Assembly (NCBI GenBank): GCA_033961575.1
Contig: CM066738.1
Coordinates: 66,315,478 to 66,379,477, forward strand
Length of the DNA: 64,000 nucleotides
Direction of reading: 5' to 3'
Origin: Aselliscus stoliczkanus
Lineage: Eukaryota; Chordata; Mammalia; Chiroptera; Hipposideridae
Shown: piece after piece, positions 3,941 through 5,330 of the stretch
Numbering within the stretch: the first letter of the stretch is position 1
Layout: each line of letters begins with the position of its first letter
Program-made: the position numbers and the translations under genes
Notes under the pieces: model-generated
Databases searched by the model: none
The model's input: only the letters and a program-made list of their open reading frames with translations
What the model was told of the DNA's origin: nothing

Positions 3941-4689
3941 ATAAATTTTATTGTGAAATAAACATTTTTTTTAAAAAAATTATTTTCAGGTGTACATCAA
4001 AATGAAACAGTTATACATTTTACCCTGAAAGTGACCACCCCTCTTCTACAGTTCGCCACCGCACTCCTCCCACCCATATCATACATATCTATTACAATTC
4101 CTTTGATTCCCTTCCACAGTATACTCCACATCCCATGACTGTCTATATATTCAGTTACAGTTGGCACACAATATTATACAATATCAGCTTCAGGTGTAAA
4201 GGGCAGTGATCAAGCCTCTACTCCATCCATGAAGTGGTCTCCCTAACAAGACGTGTAACTATCAGACACGCCACAAAATTTTTACAACATTATTATATTC
4301 CCCGAACTGTGTTTCATATCCTTGTGGCAATATTGTAGTTGTCTATTTATGCTGTCTAATCCCTTCCCCTTCTCCCTTATCCCCACCCCCCTCCCACCTA
4401 GCAACCCTCAGTTTTTCCTCTATATCTGAGTCTGTTTACTTTGCTCATTCATTCAATTTTTCAGATTCCACATATAAGTGAGATCATATGGTATTTATCT
4501 TTCTCTGACTGACTTATTTCACTTAACATAATAGTCTCTTCACAACATTATCAATTACATTGCCAGAACCATCCCCCATATCCCTGCGGCAATATTATAG
4601 TCACCCACCTACGCTGTCCAAACCTTCCCCCTCTCCCTCATCCCCACCCCTACCCAGCAAGCAACCATAAGTTTTTCCTTTATATTGGC

Positions 4690-5330
4690 TTGATGTAATT
4701 TCAATCTTCTTAAATTCGCTGAGACTTGTTTTGTGCCCTAACATGGTCTATCTTGGAAAATGTCTCCTGTGCACTTGAGAAGAATGTATATTCTATTGTT
4801 TCAGGGTGAAATGCTCTAAAAATATAGACAAAGTCCAGCTGGTCTAAAGTGTCATTTAAGGCCACTCTTTCCATGTTGATTTTCTGTCTAGAGGATCTGT
4901 CCATTGGTGACAATGGGGTGTTGAAGTCCCCTACTATGATAGTGTTACTGTTGATCTCTGTCTTTATGTCTGTCAAAATCTGTTATATATAATTAGGAGC
5001 TCCTATGTTGGGTGCATAGATGTTTATTAGGGTTATAGTGCCCTTCTTTGTCTTTTATTGTAGTCATTTTAAAGTCTATTTTGTCCAAAATAAGTACTGC
5101 CATTCCAGCTTTTTTTTTCTCTCATTTCCATTTGTATGAAATATCTTATTCCATCTGTAAACAGCATATACATGTGCCATATTTTCTTATCCACTCAGCC
5201 ACTCTCTGTCTTTTGATTGGAGCATTTAGCCCATTCACATTTAAAATGATTATTGATAGGTGCATATGTATTGCCATTTTGTTATTTGTATTCCTGGTCT
5301 TCCTGGGTTAGCTTGTTTACCTCTGTCTTT
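4690..5330 (-). pseudogene. L1 ORF2 endonuclease fragment (in L1-A)
   Basis: The minus-strand frame at 4,710-4,976 carries the APE-type endonuclease core: IIVGDFNTPLSPMDR (catalytic Asp) followed by FRAFHPETIEYTFFSSA. The DNA up to about 5,330 matches the ORF2 N-terminal region. The frame then stops at the shared deletion junction. The C-terminal part of the nuclease with its Asp-His pair, all of the reverse transcriptase and almost all of the C-terminus are missing, so no retrotransposition function is possible. Confidence 0.85.

What the first reader, a model, noticed from the sequence alone, without database searches (positions are those of the whole stretch)
4480..4760. L1-A and L1-D share one complex rearrangement: a candidate non-autonomous half-LINE subfamily
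In both copies the ORF2 3' end stops at the same place ('ataatagtctc' then 'ttcacaacattatc'). A second 3'-UTR-like block of about 150 bp follows (149-150 in L1-A, about 146 in L1-D), and both then jump to the same ORF2 endonuclease point ('gcttgatRt' then 'ttcaatcttcttaaatt'). L1-C shows the undeleted arrangement at about 56,372 and 59,457. Two shared breakpoints are hard to explain by independent deletion, so one rearranged founder probably spread. It kept 5' UTR, ORF1 and 3' UTR but lost RT, which means mobilisation in trans. HAL1 is an older precedent for this layout.
Basis: partly seen in the sequence, partly recalled or inferred. Interest (0 to 1): 0.75.

Follow-up and report, generated by a model that had tools for sequence, protein, structure and literature searches.

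The report
Half-LINE family with hyper-edited tail
The two odd repeats belong to a family of thousands of copies of a shortened jumping element that keeps one of its two genes and must borrow the other, and its younger branch carries a one-way A-to-G signature that looks like RNA editing written back into DNA.

Summary
Confirmed and extended. L1-A and L1-D share both junctions. In the window's genome J1 occurs 5,542 times at ≤1 mismatch; the reversed control gives 0. None of 20 J1 copies taken in list order shows reverse transcriptase in the ~850 bases read beyond J1. Copies have their own target-site duplications: score ≥10 in 21 of 30 tested, against 0 of 29 controls. So this is an L1-derived, RT-less family copied in trans, of the HAL1 kind.

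The junctions are not one event. J2, which removed RT, is older: rare precursors carry J2 with block B still in an older 3'UTR. J1 later replaced that tail with a C-like L1 3' end. L1-D belongs to a nested, younger branch that also lost the endonuclease remnant (2,029 joint copies).

Unexpected: between the branches, 26 of 32 substitutions in the last ~550 nt are A>G on the sense strand, nearly all-or-none, with ADAR-like 5' neighbours, and they stop at J1; ORF1 shows no skew. Best reading: an A-to-I edited RNA founded the younger branch. That step is inferred; autonomous L1s were sampled only thinly.

The parts
3936..7210 (-). L1-A: complete half-LINE copy, A-type (5'UTR - ORF1 - endonuclease remnant - block B - ORF2 3' end - 3'UTR - A-rich end)
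   Evidence: same layout in the genome copies fetched
3923..3935 (.). target-site duplication of L1-A, 3'-side copy
   Evidence: 2 of 2000 random placements reach the best match found
7211..7223 (.). target-site duplication of L1-A, 5'-side copy; next bases give TTTTT/AAAG, the L1 endonuclease type of site (site consensus recalled)
3985..4428 (-). L1-A 3'UTR (tail 3985-4274 and block U 4275-4428), C-like L1 type
4429..4538 (-). E: last ~110 nt of ORF2 kept 5' of the 3'UTR; J1 lies at 4538/4539
4539..4687 (-). block B: remnant of the precursor's older 3'UTR
4688..5296 (-). endonuclease remnant of ORF2 (no open frame over 88 aa in the majority of 33 aligned copies); J2 at 4687/4688 where RT was lost
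5340..6200 (-). ORF1 of L1-A, broken by several stops and frameshifts
6201..7210 (-). 5'UTR of L1-A
61392..64000 (-). L1-D: D-type half-LINE copy, cut by the window end (5' end not seen)
61392..61946 (-). L1-D E + U + tail: the stretch with 26 A>G family-majority changes relative to A-type (L1-D itself has G at 25 of 26)
61947..62092 (-). block B of L1-D (0 A>G changes between the A-type and D-type majorities)
62093..62122 (-). last ~30 nt of endonuclease remnant; D-type deletion joint at 62122/62123
62175..63033 (-). ORF1 of L1-D: L1 ORF1 trimerisation, RBD-like and dsRBD-like domains, one frameshift
55794..61085 (-). L1-C: copy with the undeleted ORF2 arrangement, used as reference (itself lacks ORF1)

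Best explanation
L1-A and L1-D are two members of an L1-derived, RT-less ('half-LINE', HAL1-type) retrotransposon family that spread by target-primed reverse transcription, using ORF2 protein supplied in trans by full L1 elements. Order of events: (1) An L1 lost ORF2 from the endonuclease domain into its own 3'UTR (J2), making a precursor with its own older 3'UTR [shown by precursor copies]. (2) The precursor's 3' end was replaced at J1 by the ORF2-end + 3'UTR of a C-like L1, leaving 150 nt of the old tail as block B [order shown; template switching during reverse transcription inferred]. This made A-type elements of about 3.2 kb, such as L1-A. (3) One lineage gained about two dozen A>G changes in the swapped-in 3' stretch only, up to J1, while still keeping the endonuclease remnant [shown]. 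The likely cause is A-to-I editing by ADAR of an RNA paired with an inverted autonomous L1 3' end, then reverse-transcribed [inferred, about 0.5]. (4) That lineage lost the endonuclease remnant and spread as D-type elements of about 2.7 kb, such as L1-D [shown]. ORF1 stayed open in both majorities, so ORF1 protein probably acts in cis and ORF2 protein in trans [inferred].
For: J1 5,542 copies at ≤1 mismatch, reversed control 0; D joint 2,029, control 0. All 40 scored matches to the two-junction query (L1-A itself among them; 1062 candidates) cover both junctions. None of 20 J1 loci (first 20 listed, exact matches) shows RT in the ~850 bases read beyond J1. 31 of 40 copies of the A-type set and 8 of 9 D-type copies reach the 5' end. 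Target-site duplication score ≥10 in 21 of 30 tested, against 0 of 29 swapped-flank controls; ≥9 in 25 of 30 against 2 of 29. All 8 D-type copies tested scored 8-17, without a control of their own. 3 of 20 sampled J1 loci are 5'-inverted, a mark of L1 twin priming. Precursors: 5 exact natural-context matches in the genome; L078 shows natural context and J2, without J1, in one read; L083 and L085 (read on the J2 side only) have J2; L077 is truncated inside block B and L084 is inverted. D-type is nested in A-type in the ORF1 tree rooted with L1-B; in the midpoint-rooted body tree the 10 D tips group together, support 94. Divergence from own majority 4.2% (A-type, n=31) and 2.0% (D-type, n=10). 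Majority ORF1 open for 299 aa (A-type) and 294 aa (D-type). Editing: 26 of 32 A>D changes in E+U+tail are A>G and 1 is T>C; ORF1 has 5 A>G and 5 T>C of 21; Fisher p=4.9e-5; singleton A>G share there is 0.125, P=1.3e-18. 5' neighbour is T or A at 23 of 26, against 104 of 186 for all A, p=1.7e-4. A-type copies have G at 0-5 of 26 sites, D-type at 22-26. Two of 7 endonuclease-retaining copies in the list-order sample already have the edited ORF2 end.
Against: Constraint on ORF1 is not demonstrated: among A-type copies and L1-D, shared and singleton variants have the same synonymous share (19 of 73 against 111 of 446, p=0.88), and 13 nonsynonymous to 8 synonymous changes between types do not differ from singletons (p=0.20). 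No autonomous partner was identified: that search did not complete. At the 26 sites L1-C has A throughout, but older window 3'UTRs have A at 19 and only G at 3. The older (precursor) A>G skew, 15 A>G to 0 T>C in the state shared by two copies, shows no 5' neighbour preference (8 of 15, p=0.73), and L078 alone has 23 A>G and 5 T>C of 65. Autonomous 3' ends were read in only 4 copies over E+U. The A-type sample was chosen by similarity to L1-A; the list-order sample requires an exact J1.
Confidence: 0.87

Rival explanations
1. The D-type 3' end was not edited but swapped a second time, from another L1 lineage whose 3' end already differed by these A>G changes.
For: A 3' end swap did happen once in this family (J1). 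One of the 14 A>G sites in E+U is also G in 4 of 4 sampled copies with ordinary ORF2 context; that variant is common (97 of the 100 places listed out of 976 matches). The genome search for the D-type majority marker in that context did not complete.
Against: The same 4 copies carry A at nearly all other E+U sites: one further site is G in them and in L1-C and is ambiguous in alignment, and L079 has one more G. The L1-D form of the marker in ordinary ORF2 context has 1 exact match, against 4,238 for the unedited form at ≤1 mismatch. J1 itself is unchanged. A swap does not explain the 5' T/A preference.
Confidence: 0.23
2. The A>G changes accumulated slowly under selection (for example for a G-richer 3'UTR or escape from a host repressor), or by transcription-linked mutation, not in one edited RNA.
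For: The changes lie in the 3' end outside ORF1; a second, older A>G skew in the same family could mean a lasting pressure.
Against: 26 A>G to 1 T>C (p=3.9e-6); no copy among the 41 A- and D-type rows has 6-21 of 26 sites changed (L028, kept apart, has 2); 5' neighbour preference; 0 of 39 A changed in block B directly beside it (p=0.006).
Confidence: 0.2
3. Two independent deletions or a local segmental duplication produced L1-A and L1-D.
For: Both copies lie within about 60 kb.
Against: 5,542 J1 copies over the genome, unrelated flanks, own target-site duplications.
Confidence: 0.01
4. Block B and J1 arose by a tandem duplication inside one L1, followed by the ORF2 deletion (J1 first, J2 second).
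For: Block B resembles the element's own 3'UTR, and the order B - ORF2 end - U is what a tandem duplication plus deletion would give.
Against: A precursor has J2 without J1 and two more have J2 with block B in natural context. Block B keeps 4 nt that U and L1-C lack but older 3'UTRs in the window have. None of 20 J1 copies shows RT.
Confidence: 0.04

Closest known systems
HAL1 (half-L1) families of mammals (Smit 1999; Bao and Jurka 2010)
   Same: L1-derived, ORF1 kept, RT lost, insertions with target-site duplications, dependent on L1 machinery in trans (PMC5322556, passages read). HAL1s arose independently several times (PMC5753468, passages read); in guinea pig ORF1 stayed coding for about 29-44 Myr (PMC3627910, passages read).
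   Different: Here a staged history is seen: RT loss, later replacement of the 3' end, 3'-confined A>G burst, then loss of the endonuclease remnant. Bao and Jurka 2010 itself is not held, so I cannot say whether staged histories were reported there. Whether this family already has a Repbase or Dfam entry could not be tested.
A-to-G hypermutation of retroviral RNA attributed to ADAR (avian leukosis virus, Rous-associated virus)
   Same: One-directional A>G changes in reverse-transcribing elements (PMC12925331, passage read).
   Different: Those are retroviruses; here the changed sequence became the shared state of a branch with at least 2,029 joint copies of a non-LTR element. ADAR1 is reported to restrict L1 independently of editing (PMC5974252 and PMC12925331, passages read).
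L1 5'UTR/3'UTR replacement during L1 subfamily evolution
   Same: UTR replacements are known for L1 (PMC5753468, passage read).
   Different: Here a non-autonomous derivative takes the 3' end of a C-like L1.

Membership tests
HAL1 (half-L1) | derived from L1 and encodes ORF1 | tested here: met
   Pfam L1 ORF1 trimer, RBD-like and dsRBD-like domains in L1-D; majority ORF1 open for 294-299 aa; open stretches of at least 290 aa in 4 of 33 aligned bodies (31 A-type, L028 and D; 4 long copies were dropped before the count) and 6 of 9 D-type copies
HAL1 (half-L1) | no reverse transcriptase (ORF2 lost) | tested here: met
   none in the ~850 bases beyond J1 in 20 J1 loci; in the 39 fetched A-type copies block B is followed by the endonuclease remnant, 3 of them ending before ORF1
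HAL1 (half-L1) | no ORF2 coding sequence at all | tested here: inconclusive
   D-type keeps only ~30 nt of endonuclease plus ~110 nt of ORF2 3' end; A-type keeps a broken ~600-nt endonuclease remnant with no open frame over 88 aa in the majority
HAL1 (half-L1) | inserted with target-site duplications | tested here: met
   score ≥10 in 21 of 30 against 0 of 29 controls; candidates in 8 of 8 D-type copies tested
HAL1 (half-L1) | poly(A) tail | tested here: inconclusive
   AATAAA and an A run are seen at the 3' end of L1-A by reading; not tested systematically in the genome copies
HAL1 (half-L1) | mobilised in trans by L1 ORF2 protein | not testable with these tools
   inferred from RT loss plus spread, insertion sites and 5' inversions
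HAL1 (half-L1) | identity with a catalogued HAL1 family | not testable with these tools
   Repbase/Dfam are not among the tools
ADAR-edited RNA reverse-transcribed into DNA | clustered, strand-asymmetric A>G | tested here: met
   26 A>G, 1 T>C of 32 changes
ADAR-edited RNA reverse-transcribed into DNA | G depleted upstream and enriched downstream of edited A (motif as in PMC3197674, passages read) | tested here: inconclusive
   upstream part met: G 2 of 26, p=0.016, T/A 23 of 26, p=1.7e-4. Downstream part not significant: G 10 of 26, p=0.08
ADAR-edited RNA reverse-transcribed into DNA | edited stretch able to form dsRNA with an inverted partner | not tested
   the edited stretch matches what an inverted 5'-truncated autonomous L1 would share, but the source locus was not sought

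The most novel reading that the evidence does not exclude
The younger branch of this half-LINE family (at least 2,029 joint copies) was founded by a single RNA hyper-edited A-to-I over its last ~550 nt, the stretch that can pair with an inverted autonomous L1 3' end. The edited state was fixed by reverse transcription and became the master. The older A>G skew in block B and in the precursor tail suggests this happened at least twice, so host RNA editing would act as a mutational engine in the birth of retrotransposon subfamilies.
Probability: 0.5. Interest if true: 0.8.

Novelty: new variant of a known kind. Interest (0 to 1): 0.66.

Why it matters
It gives a step-by-step record of how a parasite of L1 is made: loss of RT, adoption of the 3' end of another L1, loss of the remaining ORF2 sequence. 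If the editing reading holds, A-to-I editing, which the passages I read describe as not responsible for ADAR1's restriction of L1, has also supplied the founding sequence of a successful family. That can be tested directly in genome data.

Tried and rejected
Viral-contig scans for both junctions and for the 3'UTR found nothing, positive control included, so that collection is uninformative here; J1 was also absent from prokaryote genome contigs. I first took the alignment end at base 217 to mean that those 40 copies were D-type; that was wrong, as the 39 fetched keep the endonuclease remnant. A selection test on ORF1 variants gave no signal. Tandem duplication as the source of block B was rejected after the precursors were found. 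I first read the block-B A>G skew as a property of block B alone; it extends into the precursor tail but without neighbour preference. Against the D-type majority the block-B skew is weaker, 15 A>G of 31, because U itself changed. The J2 genome count did not complete, nor the search for autonomous partners, nor the D-type majority marker in ordinary ORF2 context. Literature: in seven searches of the held library (76, 95 and 104 on editing) I saw, by title and start of abstract, no paper on A>G-edited L1 or HAL1 copies fixed in a genome; I read passages of some papers and no whole paper, so this is weak evidence of absence.

Full report
Check of the observation. Both copies lie on the window minus strand. 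Alignment of L1-A and L1-D shows continuous homology through ORF2 3' end, J1, block B and J2, and L1-C has the ordinary ORF2 at both points. K2P between A and D is 0.112 in block B and 0.089 in ORF1; it is higher in the ORF2 end (0.241) and distal 3'UTR (0.157), which the A>G burst below explains. L1-A carries its own target-site duplication.

Genome evidence. The window lies in a 2.19-Gb genome held without a name; the SINEs suggest a rhinolophoid bat, but that is recalled and untested. A 221-base query over both junctions gave 1062 candidates, of which 40 were scored; all 40, L1-A itself included, cover both junctions. Pattern J1 occurs 2804 + 2738 times at ≤1 mismatch, control 0. Because the best-scoring set is biased towards L1-A, I also took the first 20 exact J1 matches listed on contig C1, 901 bases each. 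None of the 20 shows RT in the part read. 7 keep the endonuclease remnant (one of them, L049, with a further small deletion), 10 have the D-type deletion (one, L054, also with most of block B repeated), and 3 are 5'-inverted copies. This sample is biased towards copies with an intact J1. D joint: 1017 + 1012 matches at ≤1 mismatch, control 0.

Retrotransposition. 31 of 40 copies (39 fetched plus L1-A) reach the 5'-end marker and 30 have both ends. In those 30, target-site duplication scores reach 10 in 21 and 9 in 25; one (L038) gave none. Swapped-flank controls reach 10 in 0 and 9 in 2 of 29. Of 9 D-type copies 8 are full length, and all 8 have candidate duplications, without a control of their own. 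5' inversions agree with L1 twin priming. With RT missing in every sampled copy, the machinery must come in trans; this is inference, not an assay.

Coding capacity. In 33 aligned bodies (four long ones dropped) the majority has one 299-aa open ORF1, and the endonuclease part has no frame over 88 aa. Open ORF1 stretches of at least 290 aa occur in 4 of those 33 (31 A-type copies, the outlier L028, and L1-D), and of at least 293 aa in 6 of 9 D-type copies. Evidence for selection on ORF1 is weak: no difference between shared and singleton variants (p=0.88), and between types 13 nonsynonymous to 8 synonymous changes (p=0.20 against singletons).

Two branches. A-type copies diverge 4.2% from their majority (n=31) and D-type copies 2.0% (n=10). 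At a recalled mammalian rate of about 2.2e-9 per site per year that is roughly 19 and 9 million years. In the ORF1 tree rooted by the older element L1-B, D-types lie inside A-type; nine of ten form one group (96/96) and one (L069) sits just outside with A-types between (bootstrap not settled). In the body tree, midpoint-rooted and including the A>G stretch, all ten are together (support 94).

Order of the junctions. A pattern for block B in a natural 3'UTR context gave 129 matches at ≤1 mismatch, mostly J1 point variants among those listed; a longer pattern gave 3,720 at ≤2 mismatches, of which 5 are exact. L078 shows the natural tail, block B and J2 in one read, without J1; L077 is truncated inside block B. 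Of the other three, read on the J2 side only, L083 and L085 have J2 and L084 is inverted. So J2 precedes J1, and block B is the residue of the precursor's own 3'UTR. Block B also keeps 4 nt that the C-like 3'UTR lacks and older 3'UTRs have.

The A>G signature. Between A- and D-type majorities, ORF1 has 21 changes (A>G 5, G>A 3, T>C 5, C>T 2, transversions 6), the ORF1-endonuclease joint 3 (A>G 2), block B 3 (A>G 0), E 13 (A>G 10), U 4 (A>G 4) and tail 15 (A>G 12). In E+U+tail, A>G is 26 of 32 and T>C is 1; the strand test gives p=3.9e-6 and the comparison with ORF1 p=4.9e-5. Post-insertion singletons in the same stretch show an A>G share of 0.125, giving P=1.3e-18 for 26 of 32. L1-C has A at all 26 sites; older window 3'UTRs have A at 19 and only G at 3. 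23 of 26 sites have T or A upstream against 104 of 186 (p=1.7e-4); upstream G is avoided (p=0.016) and downstream G weakly preferred (p=0.08). This agrees in direction with the ADAR motif described in PMC3197674 (passages read). A-type copies have 0-5 G, D-types 22-26, none between. Two endonuclease-retaining copies of the list-order sample (L049, L052) already have the edited ORF2 end, so editing came before the last deletion. The changes stop at J1: 0 of 39 A in block B against 26 of 181 (p=0.006). That is what pairing with an inverted, 5'-truncated autonomous L1 would give, since autonomous L1s share no sequence beyond J1; this is inference.

Is the signature taken from an autonomous L1? 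The marker as L1-D has it (CGCAAC before ATAATAG) has one exact match in ordinary ORF2 context; 976 places match at ≤1 mismatch, and of the 100 listed 97 are a single other variant, CTCAAC (an earlier form of the pattern gave 12). The unedited form has 4,238 at ≤1 mismatch. The D-type majority form of the marker was asked for and not answered, and the 876 unlisted places were not seen. Four CTCAAC copies, read over E+U only, carry G at one of 14 sites in all four, at one more that is ambiguous in alignment and also G in L1-C there, and one copy has a further G. The 12 tail sites were compared only with L1-C and older window copies. Dropping two sites leaves the tests strong (5.8e-17, 1.1e-5, 1.3e-4). 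On rechecking I raised the odds of a second swap slightly (0.20 to 0.23) because the autonomous sample is thin.

An older skew of the same kind exists: block B against the element's own 3'UTR, 18 A>G of 26 with A-type majorities and 15 of 31 with D-type; precursor shared state against A=C, 15 A>G and 0 T>C of 31, L078 alone 23 A>G and 5 T>C of 65, with no neighbour preference. I count it as suggestive only.

Placement. By function and build this is a HAL1-type half-L1. HAL1s are known to encode only ORF1, to depend on L1 in trans and to have arisen several times (PMC5753468, PMC5322556, PMC3627910: passages read). The family itself is therefore ordinary in kind; its staged history and the 3'-confined A>G founder signature are the parts I have not seen described.

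Noticed in passing
window 10380-13430 (-): An older L1-derived element (L1-B) in which ORF1 appears to run directly into a 3'UTR with no ORF2, interrupted by a SINE at about 11052-11161; possible TSD GGGATTRTTTT at 10324/13422. Looks like a second, older half-LINE.
   Followed up: partly
window 60118-60133 (-): L1-C has lost all of ORF1: the endonuclease end of ORF2 joins the 5'UTR. It is the mirror image of a half-LINE; whether it is a single-copy deletion was not tested.
   Followed up: no
window 60133-61079 and 63210-64000 (-): The 5'UTRs of L1-C, L1-D and genome copies contain direct repeats of a unit of roughly 110-150 bp in varying number, like promoter monomers of rodent L1s (comparison recalled).
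   Followed up: no
L054 (G000:C1:5797378-5798278): A D-type copy with most of block B repeated in tandem.
   Followed up: no
L028 (G000:C8:143678600-143684100): A copy with both junctions but only 86.5% identity to the family majority, left out of the A-type counts from then on (it was among the 37 and in the tree); unexplained.
   Followed up: no
genome-wide: Many of the listed J1-like places share ATTCACAAC in place of CTTCACAAC, suggesting a further subgroup.
   Followed up: no
window 1655-2335, 38073-38416, 54611-55175: Three related mariner-like DNA transposon copies; identification as mariner is recalled.
   Followed up: no
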